In this document: piece after piece, positions 223 to 64,000 of the stretch
Position numbering within the stretch: position 1 is the stretch's first letter
How the letters are laid out: every line of letters starts with the position of its first letter
Source of the DNA: Chondrosia reniformis
Lineage: Eukaryota; Porifera; Demospongiae; Chondrillida; Chondrillidae
Assembly (NCBI GenBank): GCA_947172415.1
Contig: OX359196.1
Coordinates: 3,102,501-3,166,500, forward strand
Length of the DNA: 64,000 bases
Direction: 5' to 3'
Notes under the pieces: generated by a model
What the model was told of the DNA's origin: nothing
Database searches by the model: none
What the model saw: the letters and a program-made list of their open reading frames with translations, nothing else
Translations under genes and position numbers: made by a program

Positions 223-710
223 TCTACTAATTGTATGTTTTTGTAGTTACTAATTGTATGTACTAGTTGTATGTACTAGTAACTAGATATATGCACTAGT
301 TGTATGTAGTAGTTGTATGTACTAATGGTATGTACTAGTTGTAAGTACTAATAAGTAGTTGCATGTACTAGTTATATGTAATAGTTGTATGAACTAGTTG
401 TAGGTACTAGTAACAATCTGTATTTGCTAATTTTATATACCAGTTGAATGTACTAGTTTAAAGTAATTATATGTACTAGTTGTGTTGAAATTGTTGAATG
501 TACTAGTTGTTTGAACTAGTTGTATGTAGTTATATGTACTACTTGTATGTACTAGTTGTGTGTATTTTTCGTATGTACTAGTAACTAGATGTATGTACTT
601 GTTGTATGTACTTATTGAATGTTCTAGTTGTATGTGCTAGTTGTATATGTGTTCTAGTAAGTAGTTGGATGCACTAGTTACATGTACTAGTTTTATGAAC
701 TAGATGTATG
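223..710 (+). repeat. 13-bp satellite, left arm, segment 1
   Basis: This is a tandem array of the 13-mer TTGTATGTACTAG with frequent single-base variants and occasional extra TACTAG-like half units. All units lie in plus orientation, whereas the distal right part of the window carries the reverse complement. No gene is visible. Confidence 0.95.
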
Positions 711-2176
711 TATAGTGCATTTCACCATAAATGTAAAATTTCCAACTGTATAGTGGGGTTTAAAATAGGGCGACAAAAGTGATTAATGTGTTTTGCAAAC
801 TTGCCACAAAAATAATTATGCTCATGTAACCATGGAAACGGCAAGAAAAATTGCGACTTTCGTTGCTATGGCAAAATTTCGATTGCGCAATCGTGAAGAA
901 GAAGAACAGCAGTTAAAGATAAAAGTGAATAGTGCTTGTTGAAGAAGAAACAGAGAAGCCCAAAACGCTGGCTTCTGGTAGCCCTTGTAAGCACTCAAAA
1001 ACCTAAGTAGCGGTTTTATAATATGACATTTTATAAGAAGGTTATTGCGTGTTTCTATATTTCCGTACCTTGACGGCTTTTAATCGGTACTCCTTTCAAG
1101 TTAGTCTAATCAATACAGACTTTTAGTATAAGAATATTTAAGAAATATACTAAATCTTTAAGTAGCCTTTTTGTGAGTTTCGCTCTGTGTGATGAGATAT
1201 AAAGGTTTGAATTTTCATAGTCTATTTAACAACACTTTCAACAACTAATGAAGTATAGTTGTCTTTTAAAGAATCCTATATATTCTAGCCTTCGTATGTG
1301 TCCATTCACAGCAATATTTTAAACACTCAGATATTAATTTTAACTTACTAGACTTTTTGGGTAAGAAATTTAGCAGAAAAGTGGGGTTAATATAGACAAC
1401 CACTAATAACTTTCATTTGACATTTTTTACCAATTAAGACTCCTCGAGATTCCTATACAACTAGGCAGTGACAGTCTTTAAAGGCAGTATTTACTTTATT
1501 ACCATCTGGCTCAAATGATAAACACATTTGAAAGCACATTTTTCTAATCAAATAATAAGGTGTTATGTAAACATTATTTAATTTCTACTTACCATACAGT
1601 TCTTATAACTGTGCATGACAAAGGCACAAACAAGTTCAAATACAGAAAATGATTAACTAAAGTGTACCGTGTGCCGATATTTCACTGGATAGTTCCTCGT
1701 TATCACGATTGCCGACTTCGTCCGAATCTGGGTCGATTTCTGACATAATTTCCTACTTTAAAAGCTTTTGTCTTTAAATCGCCTTAGCTATTATAGCTTG
1801 ACCTTAGAATAAAGTGTTGTCAACGTAACAAGCGTATACCCCTCTAAAAAGCTTAAAATGTGTAAATGTTTATTTGTTTATTTTTAGACATCCATTTTTC
1901 GATAATGGTTATACGCAGGAACGTAGCGTTGTAACTCGATTTCACCTAATTAATTATGCAAAAGTGACTGAATGAAGCCATTTGATTGGCTGAAATAGGT
2001 ACCCTCTTTCAATAACGCCTATCTTTTAAACGATAGCTGCTATCGCAAAACCGAAAAAGGTACGGATTCCCTAATCTTCCCTCTTTCATTTGATACCAAA
2101 TTTGAAAATACACTGAGGATATTTTCCATAAAGCGTCTTAAAAGAAAATTTTACATTTATAGTGAAATGCACTATA
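711..2176. mobile_element. TA-flanked inverted-repeat DNA transposon, non-autonomous, about 1.46 kb
   Basis: A non-satellite block is bounded by terminal inverted repeats of about 30 bp: TAGTGCATTTCAC...ATAAATGTAAAATTT on the left (from 713) and its near-perfect reverse complement on the right (to 2,174). TA lies at each edge (711-712 and 2,175-2,176). Removing the element and one TA restores ATGTATGTACTAG, a perfect satellite unit, so the boundaries and the TA target duplication are well supported. A TA target suggests the Tc1/mariner group, but no transposase reading frame is visible in the 1.4-kb interior, so it should depend on another element for movement. The interior is A/T-rich and unrecognised. 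Confidence 0.85.
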
Positions 2177-3254
2177 CTAGTTGAATGTACAAACTTTATA
2201 TACTAGTGTATGTACTAGTAGTTAGTTGTATTTTCTAGTTGTATGTACTAGTTGTATGTATTAGTTGTATGTACTAGGTGTATGAAGGATTAACAATCTG
2301 TATTTACTATTTGTAAGTACTAGCTGTATGGACAATTTGTATGTAGTTATATGGACTAGTTGTTTGTACTAGTTGTGTGTAATTGTTGTATCTACTTGTT
2401 ATATGTACTAGTTGTATGTTCTAGCTGTTTGTATCAGTTATATGTACTAGTTGTATGTACTAGTTGTACATACTAATTGTATATACTAGTAACTAATTGT
2501 ATGTACTGGTTGTATGTACTAGTTCTATGTACTAGTTTTTATACTAGATGTATGTACTAGTTGTATGTAGTTATAGGTAAAACTGGTATGTTCTAGTTGT
2601 GTGTATATTTTATACTAGTTATATTTACTAGTGGTAGGTACTAGATTAATGTTATAGTTGTATGTTCGGATTGTATGTACTAGTAACTGAATATATGTTC
2701 TGGTTGTATGTACTAGTTAAATGTAGTAGTTGTATGTAGTAACTGTATGTGCTAGTTGTAAGTACTAGTAAGTACTTGCATGTACTAGTTATATGTACTA
2801 GTTGTATGTACTAGTTGTATGTACTAGTTGTAAGTAATTATATGTACTAGTTCTATTTATTATTTGTGTGAAATTGTGGTATGTACTAGTTATATGTACT
2901 TGTTGTATGTACTAGTTGTATGTACTAGTTGTATGTAATACTTGTATGTACTAGATGTATATACTAGGTGTAAGAACTAGTAACAATGTGTATTTACTAG
3001 TTGTAGGGACGAGTTGTACTTGTTGTATGTAGTAGTTGTATGTCCTAATTGTACGTACTAGTTGTAAGAACTAGTAAGTAGCATGTACTGGTTATATGTA
3101 ACAGTTGTATGAACTAGTTGTATGTACCAGGTGTATATACTAGTAACAATCTGTATTTACTAATTGTATGTACTAGTTGTATGTACTAGTTGTATGTACT
3201 AGTTGTATGTACTAGTTGTATGTAACAATATGTACTAGTGTTATGCACTAGTTG
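2177..3254 (+). repeat. 13-bp satellite, left arm, segment 2
   Basis: The array of TTGTATGTACTAG units resumes in plus orientation. It contains one of six copies of a longer higher-order block whose anchor GACAATTTGTATGTAGT lies at 2,331; the related anchors are at 4,561, 5,251, 10,400, 11,441 (variant) and 12,129. Confidence 0.95.
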
Positions 3255-3560
3255 TCTCTAATTAGAGCGCCGCAAGGGCCACAATATTGTTTTCAGAAAT
3301 TATATTAACGTATGGCTTCCTGTTCGTAGTTTTGTAAATATATACGTATATATCTGAAAAAAATGGCGGACGTTGGGGTAGCTTTCATTTTCTAACTTAA
3401 AATCAGCTTTCTCTTCCTTAGCGTAGAACATTGAACAAACGAAATGGATTTCAAAACGATCCTTACTAACACAATGTAACATAAAGCTTGCGCAAAAATT
3501 GACGGCCAACAAGAGTCGATCTGAAATCAGTTTACCGGATATCCATGAGAACCAGCCAAG
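3255..3560 (+). mobile_element. Interspersed element A, copy 2 (lacks the terminal hairpin)
   Basis: This copy has a 5' part not seen in copies 1 and 3. It starts at the perfect palindrome CTCTAATTAGAG (3,255-3,266), followed by G/C-rich sequence and AAAAAAATGGCGGACG. From 3,408 it matches copy 1 closely. It stops at CCAAG (3,560), exactly where the 3' hairpin begins in the other copies, and passes straight into satellite. The hairpin was lost by deletion or template switching, or was not part of this copy. The apparent 70-codon reading frame on the minus strand here is in non-coding repeat and I do not call it. Confidence 0.75.
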
Positions 3561-4796
3561 TATGTTCTAGTTGTATGAACTAGTAAGTAGTTGCATGGAC
3601 TAGTTATAGCTGTATGTACTAGTTATATATATTAGTTGTATGTACTTTTTGTATGTACTATTTCTATGTCCTAGTTTTAGTACTAGTTGTATGTAATATA
3701 TAGTTTCATGTACTGGTTGTATGTACTAGTTGTAAGTACCAGTTGTATGTGCTTGTTGTATTTACTAGTTTTATGTACTAGTTGTATTTAATTATATATA
3801 CGTACTGGTTGTGTGTACTAGTTTTGTGCAATTGTTGTATGTACTCCTTTTATGTACTAGTTGTATGTAGTAGTTGTATGTTGTTATATATATTTACTAG
3901 TTGTGTGTACTAATTGTATGTATATACTAGTTGTATATACTAGTTATATGTACTAGTTTTATGTGCTAGTTGGATGTTCTAGTAGGTCGTTGCATGTAAT
4001 AGTTGTATGTAGTAGTTCTAAGTACTAGTTTTATGTACTAGTTGTAGGCAGAAGTTGTATGTACTAGTTATATGTACTAGTAACTTTCAGTATATACTAG
4101 TTGTATGTATTGGTTGTTTGAATTAGTTTTATGTAGTTGTATTTACTACTTGTATGTACTAGTTGTGTGTATTTTTTATAAGTACTAGTTATATTTACTA
4201 GTTTAAGTTACTAGTTTTATGTACTACTTGTATATACTAGTAACTAGATGTATGTGCTTGTTGTATTTATTAGTTGAATGTACTGGTTGTATGTACTAGT
4301 TGTATGTACTAGTTTTATGTACTAGTTTTATGTACTTGCTGTATATGTGTTGTAGGAAGTTGTGCACTAGTTTTATGGACTAGTTGTATGTACTAGATGT
4401 ATGCACTAGTTGTATGAATTAATGTTAAGTATTAGTTGTATGAAGTAGTAGTTAGTTGTATTTACTAGTTGTATGTACTAGTTGTATGTATTAATTGTAT
4501 GTACTAGGTGTATGAAGTAGTAACAATCTGTATTTACTAGTTGTAAGTACTAGCTGTATGGACAATTTGTATGTAGTTATATGGACAAGTTGTATTTACT
4601 AGTTGTGTGTAATTGTTGTATCTACTTGTTATATGTACTAGTTGTATACTTTAGCTGTATGTACCAGTTATATGTACTAGTTGTATGTACTAGTTGTACA
4701 TACTAGTAACTAATTGTATGTATTAGTTGTATGTACTAGTTCTATGTACTAGTTGTATATACTAGTTTTATGTATTAGCTGTATGTCCTAAGTTTT
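3561..4796 (+). repeat. 13-bp satellite, left arm, segment 3
   Basis: Plus-orientation 13-mers. Most of this segment (3,861 to about 4,790) is also present at about 9,684-10,640, shifted by about 5.82-5.85 kb: matching anchors are 3,881/9,704, 4,051/9,901 and 4,514/10,353. This marks a long-range duplication inside the array. Confidence 0.95.
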
Positions 4797-5174
4797 AGGG
4801 GCTGCCCCAGTCAGCCCCCTCTATTATTTTCATAACACGATTTATGTATGGCTTCATGTTACGGATATATATATAATAGGACTTCATACGCAACTATTAT
4901 AACACATTTTATACGTCAATAGATGTGTAATACGAGTTCATACGCAACTATTGTAACACTTAATTTATACGTCAATACATCGCTTTTGCAAATGGCGGCA
5001 TTCAGGAAGCTATAGTTAACGAAGCTTTTCTGTCACTATTTATAATTTTAGGACACTTAAGCGTCCTCCATCGTTAGGATTAAAAGTAATATGTCAAAGG
5101 CCAACGATACGCCAAGTAGTTCGAGTAAATTTGGGGGGTGGCAGCCCCACGAGTTTTTAAACTCAAACTACTTG
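4797..5174 (+). mobile_element. Interspersed element B, copy 1, with terminal hairpin
   Basis: The sequence begins near GGGGCTGCCCC/CAGCCCCCTC and contains the internal palindrome AGGACACTTAAGCGTCCT and the motif GCAAATGGCGGCATTC. It ends in a hairpin at 5,113-5,174 (CAAGTAGTTCGAGT against ACTCAAACTACTTG). A second near full-length copy lies at 48,459-48,860 in the same orientation, and truncated reverse copies lie at 47,608-47,696 and 52,308-52,513. There is no coding frame. Its 5' end resembles that of element A copy 2 (...TATGGCTTC...), so A and B look like subfamilies sharing both ends. Confidence 0.8.
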
Positions 5175-5963
5175 TTTTTACTAGTCGTATGTACTAGTTG
5201 TACGTACTAGTAACATTCTGTATTTACTAGTTGTAAGTACTAGCTGTATGGACAATTTGTATGTAGTTATATGGACTAGTTGTATGTACTAGTTGTGTGT
5301 AATTGTTGTCTCTACTTTTTATATGTACTAGTTGTATGTTCTAGCTGTATGTACCAGTTATATGTACTAGTTGTGTTTACTAGTTGTACATACTAGTTGT
5401 ACATACTAGTGACTAATTGTATGTATTAGTTGTATGTACTAGTTCTATGTACTAGTTTTTTGTATAAGCTGTATGTACTAGTTGTTGTTACTAGTTTTAT
5501 ATACTAGTAGTTTGAACTAGTTGTATGTAGTTATATGTATTACTTGTATGTTCCAGTTGTGTGTAATGTTTGTGTTTACTATTTATATTTACTAGTTGTA
5601 GTTACTAGTTTTATGTACTAGTTGTATGTACTAGTTGTGTGTAATTGTTCTGTGTACTAGTTATATGAACTAATGGTATGTACTAATTGTGTGTAATTGT
5701 TGTATGTATTACTTATATTTACTAGTTGTAGTTACTAGTTGTATGTACTAGTAGTATGTAATAATATGTACTAGTTTTATGTGCTAGTTGTGTGAAATTG
5801 TTGTATGTATTAGTCATATGTACTAGTTGTATGAAATAATTGTATGTACCAGATGTATATACTAGGTGTAAGAACTAGTAACAATCTGTATTTACTAGTT
5901 TTAGGGACTAGTTGTATGTATTAAGTACTATGTATATATTAGTTTTATGTACTGGTTGTGTGA
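5175..5963 (+). repeat. 13-bp satellite, left arm, segment 4
   Basis: Plus-orientation 13-mers follow element B after a TTTTT tract. The segment contains another higher-order block with its anchor at 5,251. Many units carry the variant TTGTGTGTAATTG. No gene is visible. Confidence 0.95.
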
Positions 5964-6155
5964 AATTGAATGAACAAAATGGGCCTAAAAACCATCCTTA
6001 CTAAAACAATGCAACATAAAGCTTGCGCAAAAATTGACAGCCAACAAGAGTCGATCTGAAATCAGTTTACCAAATATCCATGAGAACCGGCCAAGTATTT
6101 CGAGTTTAATCAGGGTAGCCTAGGGCCCCACGAGTTTTTAAACTTGAACTCCTTG
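5964..6155 (+). mobile_element. Interspersed element A, copy 3
   Basis: This 5'-truncated copy aligns with copy 1 from AACAAAATGG onward and ends in the hairpin at 6,092-6,155. As in copy 1, a TTTTT tract and a variant ATCTACT follow. No coding frame. Confidence 0.75.
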
Positions 6156-6906
6156 TTTTTATATCTACTGATTTTAATTACTAATTGTAGTTACTAGTTG
6201 TATGTATTAGTTGTATGTAGTAGTAACTAGTTGTATGTACTACTTGTATGTACTCTTTGAATGTACTAGTTGTATGTACTACTAGTATATACTCTTTGAA
6301 TGTTCTAGTTGTATGTAATAGTTGTGTTAAATTGTTGTATGTACCAGTTATATCTACTAGTTGTATGAACTAGCTGTGTGTACTAGTTATATGTACTAGT
6401 TGTTTGTACTAGTTGTGTGTACTAGTTGTATGTACTATTATATAATTGTATTTATCAGTTATATGTACTAGTTGCATGAACTAGCTGTATGTACTAGTTG
6501 TATGTACTAGTTGAATGTGCTAGGTGTGTGTAATTTTTGTATCTACTAAGTATATTTACTAGTTGCAGTTACCAGTTGTGTGTACTTGTTCTATATAGTA
6601 GTAATTAGTTGTATGTACTTCTTGTATGGACTATTTGTATGTACTATTTGTATGTACTCGTAGTATATACAGGTTATATGTACTAGTACTATGTCCTAGT
6701 TGTAGTACTAGTTGTAAGTACTACATAGTTGTATGTACTGGTAGCATATACCAAATTTTATGTACCAGTTGTCTCTACTTGTTGTATTTACAAGTTGTAT
6801 GTACTAGTTGTATATAGTGTACTTGTTGTTTGTACTAGTGCGTGCAATTGATGTATGAACTAGTTATATGTTCTAGTTTTATGTACTAGTTGTATGTACT
6901 TATATG
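6156..6906 (+). repeat. 13-bp satellite, left arm, segment 5
   Basis: Plus-orientation 13-mers. A 63-codon open stretch here only reads the satellite (a Tyr/Leu/Val/Cys-rich 13-residue peptide period) and is not a gene. Confidence 0.95.
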
Positions 6907-7351
6907 TACAGTGTAACTTTGAAAATTTGTCACAATTCGTTTTTTGGCAAAATATTGAGTTTGGCGGATTAGCCAAATATCGTCATTATGCAATACTAAT
7001 TATAACCATCTAAATAAAACGATGAACGATATTTGCTTTTGCGTTGCCGTCGAATTCATCCTCTTATAGTCACATATCGGGCAATTTTCAAGTCAGTTTT
7101 GGAACCCTTAGAGGCAATCTCTAAGATTTATTTCGTACGATTAAAATGTTGATGAAAGCGGCGGATTACAAAGGTGGAAAACGCCTATAAGTGTACATTT
7201 GAGGCAAGAAAATAATGGCGGATGGCGGATTTGGCGGTTGGCGGATTACATAGATACTTCTAGTATGTAAATGAATTCGTTTAATACGAACTCAGGCGGA
7301 TTGGGGGGTTGTGCGTATTAAGCGGGGGCGGATTATCCGGGTTACACTATA
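6907..7351. mobile_element. TA-flanked MITE, about 441 bp
   Basis: The element starts CAGTGTAAC (6,909) and ends GTTACACTA (7,349), short terminal inverted repeats with one mismatch, flanked by TA on both sides (6,907-6,908 and 7,350-7,351). Removing it with one TA restores TATATGTACTAG, the satellite unit. The interior carries many GGCGGAT and TGGCGG motifs. A CAGT start with a TA target is typical of Tc1/mariner-type elements. There is no transposase, so it is non-autonomous. Confidence 0.75.
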
Positions 7352-7839
7352 CTAGATTGATGTACTAGTAGCGTGTAATTGTTGTACATACTAGTTTTAT
7401 GTACTAGTTGTATGTACTAGTAGCTTGTTGCATATACCAGTTGTATATACTAGTAGCTAGTTGCATGTACTAGTTGTATGTACTAGTTGTATGTACATGT
7501 TGTATATGTGTTGTAGTAAGTAGTTTTATGCACTAATTTTATGTGCTAGTTGTATGTACTAGATGTATGAACTTGTTGGATGTTCTAATTGTATGTAGTA
7601 GTTGAATGAACTAATAAAAAGTTGCATGTTCTATTTATATGTACTTGTTGAATGTACTAGTTGTATTTACTTGTTGTATGAACTAGTTATATGTACTAAT
7701 TGTGTGTACTGGCTGTATATACTAGGTGTATCTACTAGTAACTCTCTGTATTTACTAGTTGAATGTACTAGTTGTATGTACTAGTACATAGTTGTATGTA
7801 CTAATTGTATTTACTGGTTGTATTTACTAGTTGTGTGTA
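7352..7839 (+). repeat. 13-bp satellite, left arm, segment 6
   Basis: Plus-orientation 13-mers between two insertions. A 60-codon open stretch is satellite read-through. Confidence 0.95.
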
Positions 7840-8603
7840 GAAAAAATAGGGGAACTTTAAGATCTAAAGCCGATCTTAAAGCATCGATGTCATCATCATT
7901 TAACTCTGGGTATTACCCCTGCCCCCTCATGTCCCCTGAGGAGCGCAATGAGCTAATCGGCAGAACCGAAGTTCGCTTGATGGGAAACAGGGTCTCCCCC
8001 TAGCCACTCAAAAAGATGGTTGAGACATAGACAGCTGTTTTGTCCTTATTAGGACTCATCAGTTTGGCATACGATGGAAGTTAGAGTGGCTATTCTGCTA
8101 ATAAGTACTCCCAGAAGCTAAAAGCTTGTGGTTTCCTTATCAGCAGATATGGGAGACAGCCAAAAGTATGACTGACCACTAGTATGGGAAAAATAGGGAA
8201 ATTTAAGATCTAAAGCCGATCTTAAAGCATTCATGTCATCATCATTTAACTCTGGGTATTACCCCTGCCCATTCATGTCCCCTGAGGAGCGCAATCTTTT
8301 TTTCCATACTAGTGGTCAGCCCACTTTTGGCTTTATCCCATATCTGCTGATAAGGAAACCACAAGCTTTTAGCTTCTGGGAGTACTTATTAGCAGACTAG
8401 CCACTCTAACTTCCATCGTATGCCAAACTGATGAGTCTTAATAAGGACGAAACAGCTGTCTATGGCTCGAGCATCTTTTTGAGTGGCTAGCGGGAGACTC
8501 TGGTTCCCATCAAGCAAACTTCGGTTCCGCCCATTAGCTCATTGCGCTCCTCAGGGGACATGAATGGACAGGAGTAATACCCAGAGTTAAATGATGATGA
8601 CAT
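7840..8603. mobile_element. Foldback sequence: long inverted repeat with a partial direct repeat in the loop
   Basis: A forward copy (about 7,840-8,187) is followed by a second, partial forward copy (about 8,188-8,295, restarting at GAAAAATAGGGAAATTTAAG). A reverse-complement copy then runs from about 8,296 to 8,602. The forward and reverse arms are about 300 bp each and pair with a few percent mismatch; the partial direct copy forms the loop. A short local inverted repeat (AGATC..GATCT) lies in both forward copies. The satellite resumes with TTGTGTGTAATTG. A 61-codon open stretch reads into the forward arm (for example FNSGYYPCP) but ends quickly. The unit may be a retroelement 3' end. The forward-partial-reverse order suggests template switching at insertion. 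Confidence 0.75.
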
Positions 8604-11600
8604 AGTTGTGTGTAATTGTTTTATGTACTAGTTATATGTACTAGTTGTGTGTAATGATTTTACGTACTAGTTCTATGTACTAGTAAGTAGTTGCATGTAC
8701 TAGTTGTATGTACTAGGTGTAAGTACTAGTAACAATCTGTATTTACTAGTTCTATATACTAGTTCTATGTACTAGCTGTATGTACTAGTTATATGTACTA
8801 GCAACTTTTATACGTAATACTTGGACGAACTAGTTGTATGTACTATATGTATGTACTGGTAACAATCTTTATTTAAATATTGTATGTACTTGTTGTTTGT
8901 AATTATATGTACTAGTTGTATGTACTAGTTGTGTGTAATTGTTATATGTACTAGTTATATGTACTAGTTGTAGGTACTAGCTGTATGTACTAGTTATATG
9001 TACTAGTTGGATGTACTAGCTGTATGTACTAGTTGGATTATACTTGTAACTAGTTGTATGTACTAATTTTATGTACTAGTTCCATGTATTAATTTTATGT
9101 ACTAATTCCATGTATTAATTTTATGTACTAGTTTTGTGAAATTGATGTATGTAATAGTTATATGTAGTAGTAGTATGGACTATTTGTATTTACTAGTTGT
9201 ATGTACTAGTAATTAGTTATATGTACTAGTTGTACGTACTAGTTTGATGTACTAGTCACTAGTTGCATATACTAGTTGTATGTATTTTTATGTAAATAAT
9301 TTTATGTTTATACTAGTTGTGTGTAATTGTTCTATGTACTAGTTTTATGTACTAGTTCTATGTTTTAATTTTATGTACTAGTTTTGTGAAATTGATGTAT
9401 GTAATTGTTATATGTAGTAATAGTATGGACTATTTGTATGTACTAGTTGTATGTACTAGTAACTAGTTATATGTACTAGTTGTACGTACTAGTTTGATGT
9501 ACTAGTTGGATGTACTAGTCACTAGTTGCATATACTAGTTGTATGTAGTTTTATGTAAATAGTTTTATGTTTATACTAGTTGTGTGTGATTGTTCTATGT
9601 ACTAGTTATATGTAGTAATTATATGTAGTTAACATATGTACTAGTTATATGTATTAGTTGTATGTTCTAATTATATGTACTAGTTGCATGTAGTAGTTGT
9701 ATATTGTTATATATATTTACTAGTTGTGTGTACTAATTGTATGTATATATATACTAGTTGTATATACTAGTTATATGTACTACTTGTATGTACTTATCTG
9801 TACTAGTTTTATGTGCTAGTTGTATGTTCTAGTAGGTAGTTGCATGTAATAGTTGTATGTACTAGGTCTAAGTACTACCTTTATGTACTAGTTGTAGGCA
9901 GAAGTTGTATGTACTAGTTATATGTACTAGCAACTTTAAGTATATACTAGTTGTATGTATTAGTTGTTTGAATTAGTTGTATGTAGTTGTATGTACTACA
10001 TGTGTGTACTAGTTGTGTGTATTTTTTGTGAGCACTAGTTATATTTACTAGTTTAAGTTACTTGTTTTATGTACTAGTTGTATATACTAGTAACTAGATG
10101 TATGTGCTTGTTGTATTTATAAGTTGAATGTACTGGTTGTATGTACTAGTTTTATGTACTAGTTTTATGTACTTGCTGTATATGTGTTGTAGGAAGTTGT
10201 GTGCACTAGTTTTATGTACTGGTTGCATGTACTAGATGTATGTTCTAGTTGTATGAATTAATGTTAAGTATTAGTTGTATGTACTAGTAGTTAGTTGTAT
10301 TTACTAGTTGTATGTACTAGTTGTATGTATTAGTTGCATGTACTAGGTGTATGAAGTAGTAACAATCTGTATTTACTAGTTGTAAGTACTAGCTGTATGG
10401 ACAATTTGTATGTAGTTATATGGACTAGTTGTATTTACTGGTTGTGTGTAATTGTTGTATCTACTTGTTTTATGTACTAGTTGTATGTACTAGCTGTATG
10501 TACCAGTTATATGCACTAGTTGTATGTACTAGTTGTATGTACTAGTTGTACATACTAGTAACTAGTTGTATGTATTAGTTGTATGTACTAGTTCTATGTA
10601 CTAGTTCTATGTACTAGTTTTATGCATAAGCTGTATATCCTAATTTTCTTTAATACTTTTATGTACTAGTTGTTTGAACTAGTTGAATGTAGTTTTATGT
10701 ACTACTTGTATGTACTAGTTGGGTGTAATTTTTGTAGGTACTAGTTATATTTACTAGTTGTAGTTACTGGTTTTATGTACTCGTCGTATATACAAGTTGT
10801 ATGTACTAGTAGTATATATTAGAAGTATGTACAAGTTTTATGTACTAACATCTAGATGTATGCATTAGTTGTATGTACTAGTTGTATCTACTAGTTTTAT
10901 GGACTAGTTCTATGTACTAGTTGTATAGATGTGCTAGTAAGTAGTTGTATGTACTAGTTATATGTACTAATTGTATGTACTAGCTGTATTGATTAGTGTA
11001 TGTACTAATTGTATGTACTAGTTGTATGTACTAGTAACTATCAGAATATACTAGTTATATGTACTAGTTGTTTGAACTAGTTGTACGTAGTTATGTGGAC
11101 TACTTGTATGTAATCGTTGTGTGTATTTTTCGTATGTACTAGTAACTAGATTTATGTACTTGTTGGATATACTTGTTGAATGTTCTAGTTGTATGTGCTA
11201 GTTGTATGTACTTGTTGTACATTTGTTCTAGTAAGTAGTGGATGCACTAGTTATATGTACTAGTTTTATCAACTAGATGTATGTACTAGTTGAATGTACA
11301 AATTTTATGTACTAGTAGTGTGTACTAGTAGTTAGTTGTATTTACTAGTTGTATGTACTAGTTGTATGTATTAGTTGTATGTACTAGGTGTATAAAGGAG
11401 TACCAATCTGTATTTACTAGTTGTAAGTACTAGCTGTATTTAAAATTTGTATGTAGTTATATGGACTAGTTGTATGTAGTAGTTGTGTGTAATTGTTGTA
11501 TCTACTTGTTATATGTACTGGTTGTATGTTCTAGCTGTATGTACCAGTTTTATGTACTAGTTGTAAATACTAGTTGTACATACAAGTAACTAGTTGTATG

Positions 11601-48433: not shown

Positions 48434-48458
48434 AGGGGGACCCTTTAATAAAGTTCGG
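48434..48458 (-). repeat. 123-bp satellite fragment, left piece of an island
   Basis: GGGGGACCCTTTAATAAAG plus TTCGGC matches the GGGGACCCTTTAATCGGATTCGGC part of the 123-bp monomer in the right-arm orientation. Element B copy 2 separates it from the remaining island. Confidence 0.65.
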
Positions 48459-48519
48459 CAGCCCCCTCTATTGTTTTCATAACACGATTTATGTATTTCT
48501 TCATGATACGGATATATAC

Positions 48520-48550
<31 letters not shown>

Positions 48551-48860: not shown

Positions 48861-49033
48861 GCTACAGATTCATAGCCTATATGTTTGAAATCGGCAGCCA
48901 TTTTAACTCGGAGATAAGTCGTAGATCTTTGGGGACACTTTTATCGAGTTCGGTGGCCTATTTTATCCTAGGAACGGTCTTTGGTACGCTTTCAGAGCCC
49001 ATATTTTCGAAATTTGTAGATTTTAACTCAGAG
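48861..49033 (-). repeat. 123-bp satellite island within the 13-bp array
   Basis: About 1.4 diverged monomers (TTCATAGCCTATATG, CGGCAGCCATTTTAACTCGG, GTCGTAGATCTTTGGGGACA) in the same orientation as the main right array, about 13.5 kb beyond its end. Their divergence resembles that of the edge monomers at 34.6-35.3 kb. Confidence 0.8.
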
Positions 49034-52000: not shown

Positions 52001-52307
52001 ACAATTAGTAAACACAGATTGTTACTAGTACATACAACTAGTACATATAATTAGTACATGCAACTACCAACTAGAACATCTATACAACTAGTATATACGA
52101 CTAGTACATTTTACAAGTAACTATAGCTAGTAAATATAACTGGTACATCCAACTACTTACTAGTACATACAACTAATACATACAATTAGAACAAAAACTA
52201 CTATATATACCTATTAGTTACAACAATTACACAGAACCAGGACTTACAACTAGTACATATAACTACATACAACTAGTTCTAACAACTAATACATAAACTA
52301 GTAAAAA
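49034..52307 (-). repeat. 13-bp satellite, right arm, segment 6
   Basis: Reverse-orientation 13-mers with frequent variants; no insertion and no gene is visible. Confidence 0.93.
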
Positions 52308-52513
52308 CAAGTATTTCGAGTTTAAAAACTCGTGGGGCTGCCGCCCCCCAAATTAACTCAAACTACTTGGCCGCATCATTGGGATTTAATATATATATTT
52401 GTAATACTAACGATTGAGGACGCTTAAGTGTCCTGAACTTTTTAAATAATGATGGAAAAGCTTCGTTAACTAAAGCTTCCTGAACGCCGCCATTTGCAAT
52501 ATCGATGTATTGC
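52308..52513 (-). mobile_element. Element B, copy 4 (reverse, 5'-truncated)
   Basis: The hairpin at 52,308-52,369 is followed in reverse order by the palindrome AGGACGCTTAAGTGTCCT and CGCCGCCATTTGC, and the copy ends at TATCGATGTATTG. About half of the element remains. A TTTTT tract flanks the hairpin side, as in the other copies. Confidence 0.8.
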
Positions 52514-55500: not shown

Positions 55501-56073
55501 TACATACATCTCGTTACTGGTACATACAACTAGTACATACAACTAGTACATACAACTGGTACATATAACTAGTACATGCAACTACTTACTAGTACATAAC
55601 AACTAGTACATGCAACTAGTACATACAACTAGTACATATAACTAGTACATGCAACTACAAACTAGAACATCTATACAACTAGTACATACGACTAGTACAT
55701 TTAACTAGTAACTCCAACTAGTAAATATAACTAGTACATATACAAATTTTTCACAACTAGTACATACAACTAGTACATATAACTAGAACATGCAACTACT
55801 TACTAGTACATACAACTAATATATACAATGAGCACATATAACTAGTACATACAGCTAGTACATACATCTAGTTACTAGTACAAACAACTAGTACATACAA
55901 CTAGTACATACAACTGGTACATATAACTAGTACATGCAACTACTTCCTAGTACATACCACTAGTACATAAAATTATTATATAAAACTAGTACATATAACT
56001 AGTACATAACACAATTACATACAATTTGTACATACAACTAGTAAACACAGATTGTTACTAGTACATACAACAA
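52514..56073 (-). repeat. 13-bp satellite, right arm, segment 7, with an approximately 1.1-1.3 kb duplication
   Basis: Reverse-orientation 13-mers. A long block is repeated: ACAATTGCACACAATTA at 53,401 and 54,681, CACATAACTAGTACCTATAT at 53,761 and 54,884, and TGCAGGCAACTACTTATTAG at 54,221 and 55,344. The shift is 1,280 bp in the first part and 1,123 bp in the rest, so the copies differ by an indel of about 157 bp. Confidence 0.9.
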
Positions 56074-58312
56074 GGATAGGTTTGGTGTTGTTGAAGAATG
56101 AGCGCCATCAGTGGTCCTGTTAACTGTTGCGAACTGTCAAACACCAAGTTTGCGGACTTGGTGGGGTTGGGAATACCAAGGCCACCCAGTCTAGTGGGAA
56201 GTGCTAACAGGTCTCTCTCTTGTTCCGTGAAGGCACTTCTACTTGTGAGAGCTGGTAAGCATTTGTAGCACATGGCATTCTCAAGAGGCTGAAAGAGGTC
56301 ATGATGTTGGGGATCATTCTCGACAAGTACGTCCACTTACTGGAGAGGCCATGTGTCATAGCAGCGTATGCTGCATGCGGCTGGCTTCTGGCAAGAGCTG
56401 CCAACCGCTCCACTTCTCTTACCCACTCCTGAACCTTGCCTGTCACATATGTCTCCACAAAGGTCTGAGACCCCAGTGCAGCCCCTAGATGTTTCTGCCC
56501 TTCTCTGGTAATCTGCACATCAAGTGCCTTGAAACAGTTCAGCAGCCCGGGCTGTATGTTCCTCCTTGACAAAGAGCCATGACTTTGAGGCATTCGCATG
56601 ATAACCGAAGTCTGGTCAAATCTCCTCCTTTATCCCACCAATGTTTAAGCTGATGGAGTTGGCCACCGGCAGAGGCATCATCAGCGAACCAAACTTGTTT
56701 TACCTGACTCAACTTGTCCAGTTTGTGGATGAGAGGTATAGTGGCAATGGCACACATTGCTATTGCCAGGGGATCACCCTGAGTCGTACCCTCTCTGGAG
56801 TAAATAACTTCTCCGTCAACAAAGAGCTGGGCATCAGCACGGTATGTATTCACTTTTGCAAGGGCAATTGACGGGCAGAGACGCAAGACGTTCTGAAGGG
56901 CAACTTGTCTGTTCAGGGAGTTGAAGGCGTTCATTGCATCTACCAGCAGTACTGCTCCGATGTTGGCATCTTGGACTTGTGGGCCTGCAGCAGCCAACAC
57001 TGCTTTGGCAATAATCCTTCTGACCACTTCACCCATCCCTACTGGTCTAATCCCAGGACATTTGTCTAGGGCCACTAGTCTACAGGCAGTGAAGGCATCC
57101 AGGCCGATGGGATCCACAAATTGCTGGCAGATGTGACGTACTACCATAGTCACTGCTTCACGCAGGTCCACCGACTCCTTTCTAATTGATGACAGAAGGC
57201 GCCTCCCACCAGCAGCATCCATTCCTGATGGCCCTGCAGCCCCATTTGTTCTTAGGGCAATATGATGTATTAGAAGGCCATTAATCTGTTCATATAGGAT
57301 AGGATGGGGAGTCTCTTGGTGGAATATTCTTCATTTATAACTACAGACATCTTGAGGGATTGGGCTTCCGGATGCTTTTCCATCAATACCTCCCGAACAG
57401 TCCTACTTTCACCAGCACCACCTGGGACACAACTGTCTAGGCTCAGTCTCCCTCCTCTGCTGTGATCTCTCAGAAGTCGAATGGCCACTCGAATATTGCT
57501 CATGAACATGAGGTTGGCAAAGGAACCTGTGCTTCGGACTTTTCTCTGGAGAGGGAGTTGGTTCTGGATAGTGCACCCTTCATGAAGGGCATCAATATCT
57601 CCATTTTCCACGATGTCACTCTGCACTCTAGGCATATAGAATGCTCCTTTGTTTTGGCAGATCTATGTGGCTTCTGAAGTAGTAAGGCGGTCATTGTCAT
57701 CACACACTTAAGGGCAATTTGTTCCAGCGGAGAATTCTGGGTATAGGCATGGTATAGGTGACCCATTCTGAAACGAAAGCTTTACCCACCTCACCCGAGG
57801 GAACCTTAAAAAGGTTTCCACGCCAATGGACAGTTTATGCGTAGGCATGATTTATCACTTCTGTTAATGCGGCTCCATCTACCTCACCCCATTTGAAGTT
57901 TGGCTCCTGGACTGCTGTAAATGATGGCAGGATGTTCGATGAGTCCTGGATATCCTCAACATATTCAAGGTTCTGGCCATCCAGGGTTGCTCCTGGGGTA
58001 TCCTGGGTATCTGGTACGGCCAATATACTGACAGGAACAGAGTCGGTTGGGTTGTGTTCTTCTTGAACAGCCGTACTGTCTGATCCATCACCATTTGCAC
58101 CTTGATGGACGTCAATGTTGCAGCAACGTCCTCTTCTTATTGGGAGACAATCAGAGCAGCGATTCCTTGATCAAGGAAAGGAACAATTTAGACATCTGCC
58201 GCTACCATTGCACCGGCAGCAGATTGGTATTCTTCTCGAAATCTCAGTGCGATTCTCAATCAATCACTCAATCAAAACACGAGGTGTCGCCATATATTTT
58301 TCACATATTATG
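56074..58312 (-). pseudogene. Dead LINE-like retroelement: Cys-rich N-terminus plus reverse transcriptase
   Basis: A degenerate coding region on the minus strand. It begins near 58,224 with a Cys-rich, zinc-finger-like segment (CCRCNGSGRCLNC, then CSDC and GRCC), interrupted by a TGA. A linker follows (to ILPSFTAVQEPNFKWGEVDG, ending in TAA near 57,837), then an upstream helical region. The RT domain spans 57,222-56,539: fingers motif PGIRPVGMGEVVRR (residues 56-69 of that 227-codon frame), motif A LLVDAMNAFNSLNR with Asp95, motif B EGTTQGDP (144-151), and motif C FADD (179-182) carrying the catalytic Asp pair. Downstream, HLGAALGSQTF (near 56,480) and LPTRLGGLGIPNPTK (near 56,180) continue the protein in two other frames. 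I count at least two stops and five frameshifts, for example near 57,310 and 56,600. The 3' end is cut at the satellite border near 56,073. The motif set fits non-LTR elements; the clade is uncertain. Confidence 0.85.
56539..57285 (-). pseudogene. Reverse transcriptase domain of the dead retroelement
   Basis: This is the longest uninterrupted frame in the island. Before its first Met (57,222) the same frame already reads ALRTNGAAGPSG, so the true domain starts upstream, across a frameshift near 57,310. The fingers motif (PQVQDA at residues 81-86) passes to motif A after only a few residues. Related proteins, as I recall them, have a longer segment here, so an in-frame deletion of roughly 25 residues is likely. 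The catalytic Asp residues are kept, but the flanking breaks make an active enzyme very unlikely. Confidence 0.85.
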
Positions 58313-59326
58313 CATGCAACTAGTATATACAACTAGTAAATACAGATTCTCACTAGTACATACACCTAGTACATACAACTAGTACATACAACCAGTCTAT
58401 ATAACTAGTTTATGCAACTACTTTCTAATACATACAACTAGTGCATGCAACTAGTAAATACAACAAGTACATACAACTAGTACATACAACCAGAGCATAC
58501 AACTAGTACATACATCTGGTACAACAACTAGGGCATAGAATTAGTACATATAACCAGTACGTATAACTAATCCTTATAACTACTACACATAACTAGTACA
58601 TACAACTATAACATATAACTAGTACATACATATATAACTAGTACATATATATAGTACATAAAACTAGAACATACTACTAGTACACACAACTGATATATAC
58701 ATAAAACTAGTATATATACATAAAATTGTTACATGAAAAACTAGTGCATACAATTAGTACATACAATTAGAACATGCAACCACTACTTACAATTGAGTAC
58801 ATACAACTACAACCTCCACCTAGTGAATATAAGAAGATCTAGTACATACAACTAGAACATACAACTAGTATTGTGTACTTACAACTAGTACATACAACTA
58901 TGTAATACATTCAAATAGTACTTTCCATTAGTACATACAACTAGTACAAACAATTTATATATACAATTAGTACATAAAATTAGTAAATACCACAAATACA
59001 TACTACTAGTATAAACAACTAGTACATGCAACTAGCGAACGCTATTAGTACATACAACTAGTACTACAACTGGGGCATAAAACTAGTACATATAACCCTA
59101 CATATAACTAGTCCATATAACTGGTAAATAACTAGTACATACAACTAGTTCATACGACTAGTACATAGATCTAGTACATATAACCAGTACATATAACTAG
59201 TCCATTTAACTAGTACACATAACTAGTACATACAACTATTACATACAACTAGTACATACGACTGATTCATACAACTAGTACATACAACATGTACATAGAA
59301 CTAGTACATAGAACTAGTACATATAC
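58313..59326 (-). repeat. 13-bp satellite between the two retroelement islands
   Basis: About 1 kb of reverse-orientation 13-mers with variants. No gene is visible. Confidence 0.95.
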
Positions 59327-60582
59327 TTTAGAAACAAAGCCTTAATGGAGAACCTTGTTACTTCTTGCCTTAGTTCACTAAGGCAAGGAGTATCTGGCTT
59401 GGACAACCCTCAGTCAGTTATGTTTTCCTTTCTTTGGGTTTTTAGCCAGAAGCCTCGGCTTTGCCTCCTTCCGGCAGCAGCAGACAGATGCACGTCGGGC
59501 CAAAGTTGACCGTCATAATAGGAGGGAGTACCTCCATACACAAATCCACCACTACTTTCCAGAGGTCGACAGGCAAGGACTGGGACAGGACTACTTATCG
59601 TCCAGGCCCCAATCCCTCAACAGATAGATGTCGCCTCAATATCCTTACAGCCGAGCAGAGAACCGTTCTCTGCATCGCTCTCATCACTTCTACTACACCT
59701 CTTGACAGCTTTGGAATTCTCCTTAGGTCTTCCAGGAGCGTGTCCACTGTCCCCAAAGCACCAATTATCATCGGGACTACCTTAATTCGGTAGCCCCTAA
59801 ATTGTTTCCTCATATCAGCCACCAGCTTCTGGTACTTTTGGAACTTCTCTTGCCATCTTCCATTAATATTGCTGTCAGTAGGAACTGACATCTCAATACT
59901 GAAGATGACCTTACATAGCCGATCCTCAACCACTAAGTCTGGCCTTCTTTCTGTCATTTCTTCTTCTGTAGGGATACTAGGATCCCACAAGATTTTGACA
60001 GCCCTATTCTCATAGACTGGTTTTGCTTCTAGTTTGTACCAGGGCTCTTCCTGCTTGAATCCATATTCTTTCAACAGTCTCAACAACACTATCAGTATTG
60101 CCCGGTCATGTCTCTATTTGTAGAGAGAAAATCCCTTGGGCTAACACATGTTTAGTATGTGTTTGACCATTTCCATAGCCTTGCCACATTCTCTGCACAT
60201 TTGGAGGCTAGAATTCTTCAGAATCCTATTTTGGTTCCACCTAGTATGCAGCACATCATCTTGGGCTCCGAGAATCAGAGCCCCAGTTTGAGGTCTGAGT
60301 CTCCCCTCAGAAAGCTACACATAAGACTCCCTATTTGTGACTTGTCTGTGGTATGAGCCTTAGTGAGACGTTTCGGCTAGGTTACTTTTTAACCTTTCAG
60401 TCTGAGCCTCCCGGAGCTCACATGCCACTCTCCTCCATTCTTGTACACTATTTTGTGATGGATCTGTCTTCAGCCACATTTCCGGTTCTAGTTCTATTCC
60501 GTGGCTTCTCAGTATCAATCTGGCTTTTTTAAGACAGTCCTCCTCTGCTTTGAGCACTCCAGCCACTTTTGGTGTTGGTACA
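59327..60582 (-). pseudogene. Dead LINE C-terminal part: CCHC knuckle and restriction-like endonuclease-type domain
   Basis: On the minus strand, a first frame (60,566-60,360; SHGIELEPEMWLKTDP) stops, then another frame reads TGALILGAQDDVLHTRW (near 60,270-60,220). Next comes a knuckle CRECGKAMEMVKHILNMC (about 60,145-60,198), spacing C-x2-C-x8-H-x4-C. TAG stops follow at the end of the knuckle and near 60,115. The frame then continues as RHDRAILIV into 60,089-59,595: LWDPSIP (residues 35-41), ERRPDLVVED (47-56), FSIEMSVPTD (63-72), QKYQKL (84-89) and VVPMIIGALGT (104-114). The RPD...E...K-x-x-K-Y order matches the C-terminal endonuclease-like domain of R2/NeSL-type LINEs. The RT part is absent, and this is a different element from the neighbour at 56-58 kb. 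At least one frameshift and two stops make it dead. Confidence 0.8.
59364..59387. repeat. Perfect 10-bp stem-loop at the retroelement 3' end
   Basis: CTTGCCTTAG, loop TTCA, CTAAGGCAAG. It lies about 200 bp downstream (minus strand) of the endonuclease-like frame, in the likely 3' untranslated region, where LINE RNAs often carry structure recognised by the reverse transcriptase (inference). Confidence 0.7.
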
Positions 60583-63500
60583 TATAACTAGTAAATACAA
60601 CTAGTCCATACAACCAGTACATACAACTAGTACATACAAGTAGCACATATGCAACCAGTGCATGTATATGGACTGGTTGCATATGTACATATACATATAA
60701 CTAGTACAAGTAGTACAAACAACTACTAACTACAACTAGTACAAATAAGTAGTCCATAAAACAATTACACACAACTAGTACATACAAGTAGTACATACAA
60801 CTAGTCCATAAAACTAGTAACTACAACTGGTAAATAGAACTAGTAAAAACAACTAGTTCGTACAACTAGTACATACAACTACTACATATAACTAGTACAT
60901 TCAACTAGTTACTAGTACAATCAACTAGTACATGCAAAGCGAACATATAACTAGTACATAGAACTGGTATATGGAACTAGTATATTCAACTAGAACATAC
61001 AACTAGTAAATACAACTAGTACATACAACTAATAACTACTACTAGTAAATATAATAAGTACATACAACCATTTCACACATCTAATACATAGTACATATAT
61101 CTGCATACAACTAGTATATCTAACTAGTACATACAACTAGATACTAGCCCATACTACTAGTTACTAGCACATACAACTAGTCCCTATAACTAGCACATAC
61201 AACTAGTCACTTCAATTACTAAATATAACTGGTATATATATTTAGTACATATAACTACATACATCTAGTACATACAGTTGGTATATACAAGTAGTAAATA
61301 CAGATTGTTACTAGTACATTCAAATAGTACATTAAACTACTATATACAAATAGTAAATATAACTATGGCATACAACTAGTTAATAGCATATACAACTAGT
61401 ACACACAACTAGTATATACAAATAGTACTTTCAACTAATTCGAACAACTATTACTATAACTAGTACAAAGAACTAGTACAAAGAACTAATACATACGACT
61501 ATTTCATACAACTGGTTACTACTACAGTCATCCGCTATGCACATCTAGTACATACAATGACTTACTAGTATATACAACTAGTACATACAAGTAGTACATA
61601 CAACTAGTACATACAACTAGTACATACGACTAGTTCATGCGACTAGTCCATACAACTGGTACATAGAACTAATACATAGAACTTGTACATATAACTAGTA
61701 AATACAACTAGTCCATGTAACCAGTAAATACAACTAGTACATACAAGTAGTACATACAACTAGTACATATAACTACCTCATACAACTAGTTACTAGTACA
61801 TACAACTTGTACATACAACTAGTATATACAACTAGTACATAGATCTATCACCTAGAACTAGTATATACAACTAGTACATACAACTAGTACATACAACAAG
61901 TATATACAACTAGTACATAGATCTATCACCTAGAACTAGTATATACAACTAGTACATAGATCTATTACCTAGAACTAGTATATACAACTAGTACATACAA
62001 CTAGTAAATACAGATTGTTTCTAGTACATACAACTAGTACATACAACTAGTAAATACCACTAGTACATATAACTAGTACATACAACTAGTACATACAACT
62101 AGTACATATAACTAGTACAAATACTAGTTATTAGGACATACAACTAGGACTTCAACTGGTACATACAACTAGTAAATATAAATAGTACATACAACAATTA
62201 CGCACAACTAGAACATACAAGTAGAACGTATACCTATGTACCACTAGTACATACTTCTAGTGCCTACAATTAGTACATACAGATAGTTACTAATACATAG
62301 AACTAGTACATAGAACTAGTACATAGAACCAGTAGGTACAACTAGTACATAATAACTAGTACATACAACTAGTACATATAACTAAGACATACAGATAGTT
62401 TCTTGTACATACAACTAGTACTAACACTAAGGCATAGAGCTAGTACATATACCCAGTACATATGACCAGTACATATAACTAGTACAAATAACTAATACAT
62501 CCAACTGGTGTATGCAACCAGTACATATACATATAACTATTACTTATATATAGTACATAAAACTAGAACATACTACTAGTACATAGAACTAGTTTATACA
62601 TGCAACTAATATATATAACAAGTACATAAAACTATTACATACGATCAGAACATACAACTAGCACAAAACTAGTACCTAAAATTACTACAAATAATTACAA
62701 CATGCAACCACTACTTACAATTGAGTAAATACAACTAGAACCTCCAACTAGTAAATACAACAAATGCTAGTACATACAACTAGAACATGCAACTATTAGT
62801 GTGTACTTACAACTAGTACATACAACTGCATTGTACATTTAAATAGTACATTCAATGAGTACAAACAACTAGTACATGCAACTAGTACATACGACTAGTA
62901 CATACGACTAGTAGATACAACTAGAACTACAACTAGTCTATAGACCTAGTACATATAACGAGTACATATAACTAGTACATACAATTATTATATTTAACCA
63001 ATACATATACATATAACTAGTTCATATAAATAGTACATAAACTAGAACAACTACCAGTACATACAACTAGTACACACAACTAGTCCTACAACTAGGACAT
63101 AAAACTAGTACATACAACTAGGACATACAGATAGTTACTAATAAAAGCAACTAGTACATACAATTGTTACAACTAGTAACTACAACTAGTACAAATAACT
63201 AGAACATACAACTATTACACACAATTAGTACATACAATTAGTACATATAATTATTACATAAAATTAGTATATACAACTAGTTTCTAGTACATAAAAAAGG
63301 TACATACAACTAGCATATACAACTAGTATATACAACTAGTACAAATAAGTATACATAGAACAATTGCACACAACTAGTACATACAAGTAGTACATACAAC
63401 TAGTATATACAACTAGTAACTACAACGGGTAAATACAACTAGTACATACAACTAGGATATACAAGTATTAAATGCAGAGTGTTACTAGTACATACAACTA

Positions 63501-64000
63501 GTTTGTACAACTAGTACATACAACTAGTTTGTACACCTAGTACATACAACTACTACATATAACTAGTATATTAAACTAGTTACTAGTACATACAACTAGT
63601 ACATGCAACTAGAAGATATAACTAGTACATAGGACTAATATATAGAACTAGTATATACAACTAGTATATCTAACTAGTACATACAACTAGTACATACAAC
63701 TAGTCCCTACAACTAGTAACTACAATTAGTAAATATAACTAGAATATATATTTAGTACATATAACTACATAAAACTAGTTCATACAACTAGTATATACAA
63801 GTAGTAAATACAGTTTGTTACTAGTACATTCAACTAGTACATAAAGCTATTATATACAAATAGTACATATAACTACTGCATACAACTAGTTACTACTACA
63901 TCCAACTAGTACATACAACTAGAATATACAAAGAGTGCATTCAATTAGTACGTACAACTATTACTATAACTAGTACATACAACTAGTACATATAACATGT
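60583..64000 (-). repeat. 13-bp satellite, right arm, terminal segment, continuing beyond the window
   Basis: Reverse-orientation 13-mers to the end of the window. They contain a few short direct duplications, such as CTAGTACATAGATCTAT(C/T)ACCTAGAAC at about 61,835, 61,911 and 61,948, and one small hairpin (60,645-60,686). No gene is visible. Confidence 0.95.
60645..60686. repeat. Perfect 15-bp inverted repeat in the 13-bp array
   Basis: ACATATGCAACCAGT (60,645-60,659) and ACTGGTTGCATATGT (60,672-60,686) flank a 12-base loop. The right arm of the hairpin is the only satellite-like stretch in plus orientation in this part of the array, so a local inversion-duplication of about one unit is likely. 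Confidence 0.75.

What the first reader, a model, noticed from the sequence alone, without database searches (positions are those of the whole stretch)
223..64000. Three satellites nested in mirror order: a giant inverted structure centred near 20.6 kb
The order is 13-bp(+), 123-bp(+), 145-bp(+), then 145-bp(-), 123-bp(-), 13-bp(-). All three families change strand at the centre and none changes strand elsewhere in bulk. Such order is not expected from independent satellites. Foldback elements with tandem-repeat inverted ends are known (Drosophila FB, sea-urchin TU), but with far smaller arms; here the arms are at least 20 and 43 kb and use three different units. This could be a giant foldback-type element, a heterochromatic palindrome, or the end product of breakage and fusion.
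Basis: partly seen in the sequence, partly recalled or inferred. Interest (0 to 1): 0.87.

Follow-up and report, generated by a model that had tools for sequence, protein, structure and literature searches.

The report
Probable mirror-image centromere of a sponge
The window holds a small core of repeats flanked on both sides by two further repeat families in mirror order, and a block of the same build occurs near mid-chromosome on 13 of the 14 chromosomes of what is very probably the kidney sponge, so it is probably this animal's centromere (the point where the cell pulls chromosomes apart), though no protein-binding data were available.

Summary
The window reads 13-bp(+), 123-bp(+), 145-bp(+), then 145-bp(-), 123-bp(-), 13-bp(-), with the strand switch at about 20,564-20,590.

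It is not unique. The 145-bp unit was found at 14 places, one on each of 14 chromosomes, at 0.38-0.55 of chromosome length. On 13 of 14 the core is 1.4-2.2 kb (10-16 units), switches strand in the same unit phase, and has 123-bp arrays pointing inward on 26 of 26 sides. The 13-bp satellite follows in 57 of 64 samples. Chromosome 3 differs: its 145-bp array lacks these satellites and lies in the spacer of a >=94-kb gene palindrome, ~100% identical where sampled.

Best reading: centromere cores with mirror-polarised pericentromeres; the genome also encodes CENP-A-like histones. Closest precedents: Tribolium satellite macro-dyads, Candida tropicalis inverted-repeat centromeres. Foldback transposon, breakage-fusion and assembly artefact are disfavoured. 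No CENP-A mapping or Hi-C was available.

The parts
248..13617 (+). left 13-bp satellite layer, unit on + strand (interrupted at about 717-2222, 6901-7349 and 7840-8602 by other DNA)
13620..19113 (+). left 123-bp satellite array, pointing to the core
19141..20590 (+). 145-bp core, ten + units
20564..20590 (.). strand switch (dyad centre); same unit phase as on 12 other chromosomes
20564..20998 (-). 145-bp core, three - units
21024..35303 (-). right 123-bp satellite array, pointing to the core
35318..64000 (-). right 13-bp satellite layer (interrupted at about 35,445-35,716 and in 56-61 kb); runs out of the window

Best explanation
This is the centromere of chromosome 8 (C8) of the sponge. Its 1.9-kb core of hairpin-forming 145-bp units is the probable kinetochore (CENP-A) site. 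It is flanked by inward-pointing 123-bp arrays and then by the pericentromeric 13-bp satellite, also mirror-polarised. Twelve other chromosomes carry the same cassette. Proposed working: the dyad-symmetric core and its inverted flanks give a fold-back geometry that favours CENP-A loading at the middle (inverted flanks were shown to matter for this in Candida tropicalis), and exchange through the inverted repeats moves the switch point and keeps the cassette alike between chromosomes. Shown: one 145-bp place per chromosome, mid-chromosome position, polarity, predicted hairpin of the unit, CENP-A-like genes in the genome. Inferred: kinetochore location, fold-back geometry, and a functional need for the polarity.
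For: The 145-bp search gave 14 candidate regions, all 14 scored: one on each of C1-C14 (chance of one per chromosome for 14 random places 7e-6), at relative positions 0.376-0.551. In 13 of 14 the order is 123(+) | 145(+) | switch | 145(-) | 123(-), with n/m units 11/1, 1/10, 7/6, 7/5, 5/6, 1/9, 10/3, 13/1, 1/13, 1/12, 15/1, 7/6, 10/1. The 123-bp flanks point inward on 26 of 26 sides (24 of 24 in the +-4 kb samples; 2^-26 = 1.5e-8 if sides were independent, which related sequences are not). At the switch the last + and first - unit overlap by 19-27 bases on 13 of 13, i.e. the same phase. The 13-bp polarity is as expected in 57 of 64 samples. The 40 best 13-bp matches (the query included) lie a median 0.46 Mb from the core of their chromosome, against a mean of about 2.15 Mb for random places. 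The 145-bp consensus folds as DNA at -41.4 kcal/mol, z -6.5; the 123-bp consensus does not, z +1.4. CENP-A-like histone exons, three residues longer than H3 at loop 1 (six intact, one broken), are present; the four best solved-structure matches are Cse4 and Cnp1, though ordinary H3 chains score only about 2 bits less. In C. tropicalis a plasmid with one flank turned round did not bind CENP-A (PMC4741521, passages).
Against: No CENP-A, Hi-C or cytogenetic data were available. C3 breaks the pattern: its 145-bp array has no 123- or 13-bp arrays in 10 of 10 samples at 4-45 kb and lies among host genes, while a 123-bp mirror pair without a 145-bp core lies 1.1 Mb away. The 13-bp polarity is opposite in 6 and mixed in 1 of 64 samples, on C4, C6 and C14; of the innermost samples 21 of 25 agree; beyond 0.2 Mb only 11 of 30 of the matches agree. 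In one of two annotations C13 has an inner opposite-strand unit. No clear CENP-B-box excess (7 near-matches against 3.4 expected, 5 of 100 shuffles as high).
Confidence: 0.78

Rival explanations
1. Passive layering (shares the centromere location with the best explanation): the mirror polarity is only inherited. One ancestral palindromic cassette was copied to all chromosomes, and satellites expanding in the middle pushed older layers outward. Polarity has no function.
For: Eight cores share one homologous switch and edge unit (edge clade 100/99 support; switch identity 0.884 when oriented against 0.787 as is). Units differ little less within than between chromosomes: 123-bp 0.108 and 0.116, 145-bp 0.154 and 0.177. 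Outer 123-bp units are somewhat more diverged (Spearman -0.32, p 0.04, and -0.29, p 0.002).
Against: Five cores (C4, C5, C6, C8, C13) lack that shared edge unit and their switches are only 79-80% alike, about as generic units (82%), yet keep the polarity. Nearest relatives of units lie on the same chromosome far more than by chance (107 of 171 for 145-bp, 109 of 241 for 123-bp, expected 11.5 and 17.9), so chromosomes also evolve on their own. C3 has a mirror made of other DNA.
Confidence: 0.4
2. The 145-bp core is a fragile hairpin site that makes palindromes: forks or breaks there are repaired by inverted duplication, so what lies beside it becomes mirrored. Centromere function may or may not coincide.
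For: All 14 places found with the 145-bp unit lie at or near a mirror centre, with two kinds of arms: satellites on 13, host genes at ~100% identity in three samples on C3. Strong hairpin potential. In the five class-B cores arms are more alike than other chromosomes (123-bp 0.102 against 0.116; C4 0.084 against 0.122, C6 0.073 against 0.111).
Against: In the eight class-A cores arms are no more alike than other chromosomes (123-bp 0.120 against 0.116; 145-bp 0.228 against 0.167). On C3 the 600 bases sampled 4 kb left of the core are not mirrored on C3, and that palindrome could be an assembly error.
Confidence: 0.27
3. Giant foldback-type transposable element.
For: Inverted tandem-repeat arms round a centre. 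A repeat family often in head-to-head pairs is dispersed in this genome.
Against: The 145-bp unit was found once per chromosome, always mid-chromosome; no common outer end. The AT-rich end of the C3 element was found three times, all in that element.
Confidence: 0.03
4. Assembly artefact (fold-back reads or joined haplotypes) or breakage-fusion palindrome.
For: Palindromes are a known error class (general knowledge). The C3 palindrome has ~100% identical arms where sampled, so an artefact cannot be excluded there.
Against: In the window the arms differ in unit number and sequence, non-satellite DNA is hardly mirrored, and the 300 bases round the switch are only 69-81% self-complementary on the 13 loci. 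13 loci agree (not independent in descent). No N in the window or in the loci fetched by then.
Confidence: 0.03

Closest known systems
Tribolium (peri)centromeric satellite 'macro-dyad symmetries' (PMC13081366)
   Same: Satellite arrays that change strand, mostly once; conserved degenerate units at the inversion site; conserved transitions between two satellites; supposed (peri)centromeric role.
   Different: There: many intermingled arrays (5,764 TmSat2 arrays analysed) in multi-megabase regions. Here: one cassette on each of 13 chromosomes, a core of 1.4-2.2 kb, three nested families with fixed polarity, in a sponge.
Candida tropicalis inverted-repeat regional centromeres, likened there to fission yeast (PMC4741521)
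   Same: Small core (there 3.5 kb on average) flanked by inverted repeats, alike on all chromosomes; inverted orientation shown to matter for CENP-A.
   Different: Their core is non-repetitive and left and right repeats average 93% identity. Here the core is itself a satellite, the arms are tandem arrays, clearly more alike than other chromosomes' arms only on some of five chromosomes, and there are no CENP-A data.
Human alpha-satellite layers (recalled, not read here)
   Same: Older layers lie symmetrically outside younger ones.
   Different: Those layers are not described as strand-inverted mirror images (recalled).
Foldback elements
   Same: Tandem-repeat inverted ends.
   Different: Mobile, dispersed and bounded (recalled); here once per chromosome and without a common outer end in the samples.

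Membership tests
CENP-A (CenH3) centromere | CENP-A nucleosomes on the DNA | not testable with these tools
   no ChIP or CUT&Tag data
CENP-A (CenH3) centromere | genome encodes a CENP-A-type histone | tested here: met
   six intact and one broken CENP-A-like exon copies, loop 1 longer than H3; best solved matches Cse4/Cnp1, ordinary H3 about 2 bits behind; the N-terminal tail was not sought
CENP-A (CenH3) centromere | one site per (monocentric) chromosome | tested here: met
   145-bp unit at 14 places on 14 chromosomes; 123/145 cassette on 13 of 14; C3 unresolved
inverted-repeat regional centromere (C. tropicalis type) | core flanked by inverted repeats on every chromosome | tested here: met
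   13 of 14 with satellite arms; C3 by a gene palindrome with an unmirrored spacer of about 10 kb
inverted-repeat regional centromere (C. tropicalis type) | left and right repeat of one centromere more alike than those of other chromosomes | tested here: inconclusive
   123-bp units near the core: eight class-A cores 0.120 against 0.116 (not met), five class-B cores 0.102 against 0.116 (met on average, clearly on C4 and C6, not on C8); edge units of C4, C5, C6, C13 are left-right sister pairs
Tribolium-type satellite macro-dyad | satellite array with one strand inversion at a conserved inversion site | tested here: met
   single switch on 13 of 13 (12 of 13 with the second query), same phase; conserved edge unit on 8
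Tribolium-type satellite macro-dyad | sequence kinship with Tribolium satellites | not tested
   no such comparison was made
foldback transposable element | dispersed copies with a common outer end | tested here: not met
   one per chromosome; 13 of 18 samples at +-45 kb still in the 13-bp satellite
foldback transposable element | target-site duplication | not tested
   no outer end to test
breakage-fusion palindrome | near-identical arms including non-satellite DNA | tested here: not met
   window; on C3 near-identical gene arms are seen

The most novel reading that the evidence does not exclude
In this sponge the strand polarity of DNA round the core is itself part of the centromere signal: a 145-bp hairpin core marks, and perhaps makes, a mirror centre on all 14 chromosomes. 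Chromosome 3 would be a newborn case: the core moved out of the old satellite region into gene DNA, which is now a ~100% palindrome of at least 94 kb, leaving behind a core-less 123-bp mirror at 2.57 Mb.
Probability: 0.3. Interest if true: 0.93.

Novelty: new variant of a known kind. Interest (0 to 1): 0.82.

Why it matters
My searches listed no paper on sponge centromere DNA (the genome note has 0 mentions of 'centromer'; three sponge or early-animal papers that use the word say only that one Ephydatia chromosome is probably split at the centromere, give centromere positions of unicellular relatives, or name a centriole protein). If this is the centromere, an early-branching animal has very small, fully assembled, nearly uniform cores with a built-in mirror symmetry. 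That makes the old question whether DNA symmetry or hairpins, rather than sequence, help define a centromere directly testable, with chromosome 3 as a natural experiment. The Tribolium authors state that satellite macro-dyads were documented only in Tribolium (PMC13081366), so this would be a second, distant animal lineage.

Tried and rejected
Foldback element: no common outer end, one per chromosome. Recent inverted duplication of the window: arms too different, non-satellite DNA hardly mirrored. C3 array as a copy of a dispersed transposon: its AT-rich end was found three times, all in that element. CENP-B box: 7 near-matches against 3.4 expected, 5 of 100 shuffles as high, not counted as evidence. 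A BLAST comparison of samples taken at equal distances from the C3 core found no mirror; this was a sampling miss, since searching the genome with the samples at -45, -30 and +45 kb found mirror copies, while the -4 kb sample has none on C3; the other six C3 samples were not searched. Literature search for short one-per-chromosome satellite cores with inverted repeats listed one unrelated review.

A pooled statement that arms are no more alike than other chromosomes holds for class A only. The phase at the C13 main switch rests, because measured an inner junction there.

Limits: for the other chromosomes I saw the core and near flanks plus samples, not full arms: 10 samples of 600 bases on C1-C7 and C9-C11, 6 of 200 bases on C12-C14; for C8 the window itself (three stretches counted). 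The places are the first 100 of 697, covering C1, C2 and part of C3. One search scored 40 of 4,963 candidates. One search listed 100 of 2,171 places.
Full report
What is there. The window is C8:3,102,501-3,166,500 of a 117,379,552-base genome in 15 contigs. The 14 nuclear contig lengths agree with the chromosome table of Chondrosia reniformis odChoReni1.1 (C4 is 8.954 Mb here and 8.96 there; PMC12181767, passages); they sum to 117,362,101, which leaves 17,451 bases for contig 15, as the paper's 17.45-kb mitochondrion. The COX1 of contig 15 reads open with TGA as Trp. The identification is by lengths, not by a sequence match to a named record. The mirror order is real: 13-bp marker words 189/1 (+/-) left and 1/459 right, 123-bp marker words 36/0 left and 0/89 right. 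The centre lies at 20,564-20,590.

The same block on other chromosomes. A 581-base piece of the 145-bp array gives 14 candidate regions in the genome, all 14 scored, one on each of C1-C14, at 0.376 to 0.551 of chromosome length. Samples at +-4 kb show 123(+) left and 123(-) right on all 12 other chromosomes that have 123-bp flanks; with the window that is 13 of 14 and 26 of 26 sides. Unit annotation of the cores gives exactly one strand switch on each of the 13, always 145(+) then 145(-), with 10 to 16 units in all (mean 12.5) split as 11/1, 1/10, 7/6, 7/5, 5/6, 1/9, 10/3, 13/1, 1/13, 1/12, 15/1, 7/6 and 10/1 for C1, C2, C4-C14. A second query gives one switch on 12 of 13; on C13 it reads one inner unit on the other strand, ambiguous because the unit is quasi-palindromic. 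At the main switch the facing units overlap by 19-27 bases on 13 of 13, so the phase is the same.

The 13-bp layer. Of 111 sampled places on 13 chromosomes (C3 left out), 64 hold 13-bp repeats (at least 8 marker words): 57 have the expected polarity, 6 the opposite and 1 is mixed; the exceptions are on C4, C6 and C14. The innermost sample of each flank is as expected in 21 of 25. On C1 and C2 the expected polarity holds for 10 of 13 and 21 of 24 places within 400 kb, and for 11 of 16 and 26 of 31 in all. Among the 40 best matches (one on C3 left out), 8 of 9 within 0.2 Mb and 11 of 30 farther away agree, so the polarity is a feature of the neighbourhood of the core. The 40 lie a median 0.46 Mb from the core of their chromosome: the 13-bp satellite is pericentromeric in distribution.

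Two kinds of core. The edge between 123- and 145-bp arrays was aligned for 26 sides. Eight chromosomes (class A: C1, C2, C7, C9, C10, C11, C12, C14) carry on one side a special edge unit that forms one clade (support 100/99), always the side with a single unit before the switch. When these eight are turned the same way, the 300 bases round the switch are 88% identical on average, against 79% unturned. The other five (class B: C4, C5, C6, C8, C13) lack it; in four of them left and right edges are sister pairs (support 73-100), in C8 they fall in one group of five, and the five switches are 79-80% alike. In class A the arms are no more alike than different chromosomes (123-bp 0.120 against 0.116; 145-bp 0.228 against 0.167); in class B they are (0.102 against 0.116; 0.157 against 0.172), above all on C4 and C6. 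Nearest relatives of single units are mostly or often on the same chromosome (107 of 171 and 109 of 241), and in the window mostly on the same arm (126 of 153). So the mirror is old in class A, and arms may have been copied or converted within the chromosome in class B. A nearly constant total with a free switch position fits inversion by exchange between the inverted units; that is inference.

The unit. The 145-bp consensus folds as single-stranded DNA to -41.4 kcal/mol (shuffles -21.0, z -6.5); two window copies z -4.1 and -5.8, the switch 145-mer z -7.2. The 123-bp consensus and two window copies have z +1.4, +1.4 and +0.1. Only the core is strongly dyad-symmetric at unit level. In the window 123-bp units diverge slightly with distance from the core (Spearman -0.32 with 43 units and -0.29 with 110 units).

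Chromosome 3. Its 145-bp array (3,688,266-3,689,718) has ten units with three switches in a 2.2-kb element 81% self-inverted with AT-rich ends. None of ten samples at 4-45 kb holds 123- or 13-bp arrays; several reading frames there look like host genes by eye. Adaptin-domain exons lie mirrored about it: + strand at 3,665,955-3,667,738 and 3,679,994-3,683,300, - strand at 3,693,143-3,696,460 and 3,707,813-3,709,548. The samples at -45, -30 and +45 kb have mirror copies at about 100% identity (3,643,266 with 3,736,842; 3,658,266 with 3,717,943; 3,734,119 with 3,645,983). The -4 kb sample has none on C3, so the element lies in a spacer of at most about 10 kb between the mirrored exons. About 1.1 Mb away, at 2,569,549-2,571,606, nine 123(+) and eight 123(-) units face each other with no 145-bp core. 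The listed 13-bp places on C3 run from 2.53 to 4.15 Mb (list cut there) with many changes of strand. Either the centromere of C3 has moved, or its true core is missing from the assembly, or the 145-bp array there is not centromeric; I cannot decide. A false palindrome is also possible on C3.

What it most likely is. One small, mid-chromosomal, shared core per chromosome inside a pericentromeric satellite zone is what a monocentric centromere looks like, and the genome has CENP-A-type histones: six intact and one broken exon copies on C4 at 2.37-3.00 Mb, with a longer loop 1; best solved matches Cse4 and Cnp1, ordinary H3 about 2 bits behind. In Candida tropicalis a mid core of 3.5 kb on average is flanked by inverted repeats, and a plasmid with one repeat turned round did not bind CENP-A (PMC4741521, passages). 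In Tribolium madens satellite arrays form macro-dyads with conserved, degenerate units at the inversion site, and the authors write that such dyads were documented only in Tribolium (PMC13081366; abstract, passages and whole Discussion). The sponge differs in having one cassette per chromosome, a tiny core, and three nested families of fixed polarity. I therefore file it as a new variant of a known kind. A function of the polarity is not shown. The searches that listed no paper on sponge centromere DNA were made; three listed papers were checked by passages, the rest by listing only.

Noticed in passing
C4:2.37-3.00 Mb (L044, L049-L053, L059): CENP-A-like histone exon present in six intact and one broken copy on one chromosome: a multi-copy CENP-A-like family.
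   Followed up: partly
C3:3,643,266-3,737,441: >=94-kb gene palindrome, ~100% identical in three samples, round the C3 145-bp array; related copies on C11 (98-99%) and more diverged ones on C5 and C6 (86-95%).
   Followed up: partly
C3:2,569,549-2,571,606 (L187): Nine 123(+) and eight 123(-) units face each other without a 145-bp core: possible relic of an older centromere.
   Followed up: partly
window 56,539-57,330 (-): Reverse-transcriptase-like frame (PF00078 E 0.003, below the curated cut-off) inside the right 13-bp layer; a similar frame lies in L146 on C9.
   Followed up: no
C3:3,734,119-3,734,718 (L097): Holds a dispersed repeat often found as two head-to-head copies, like a small foldback element.
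   Followed up: no
123-bp consensus: The 123-bp unit looks like a dimer of two halves of about 61 bp that share their first 14-16 bases (consensus).
   Followed up: no
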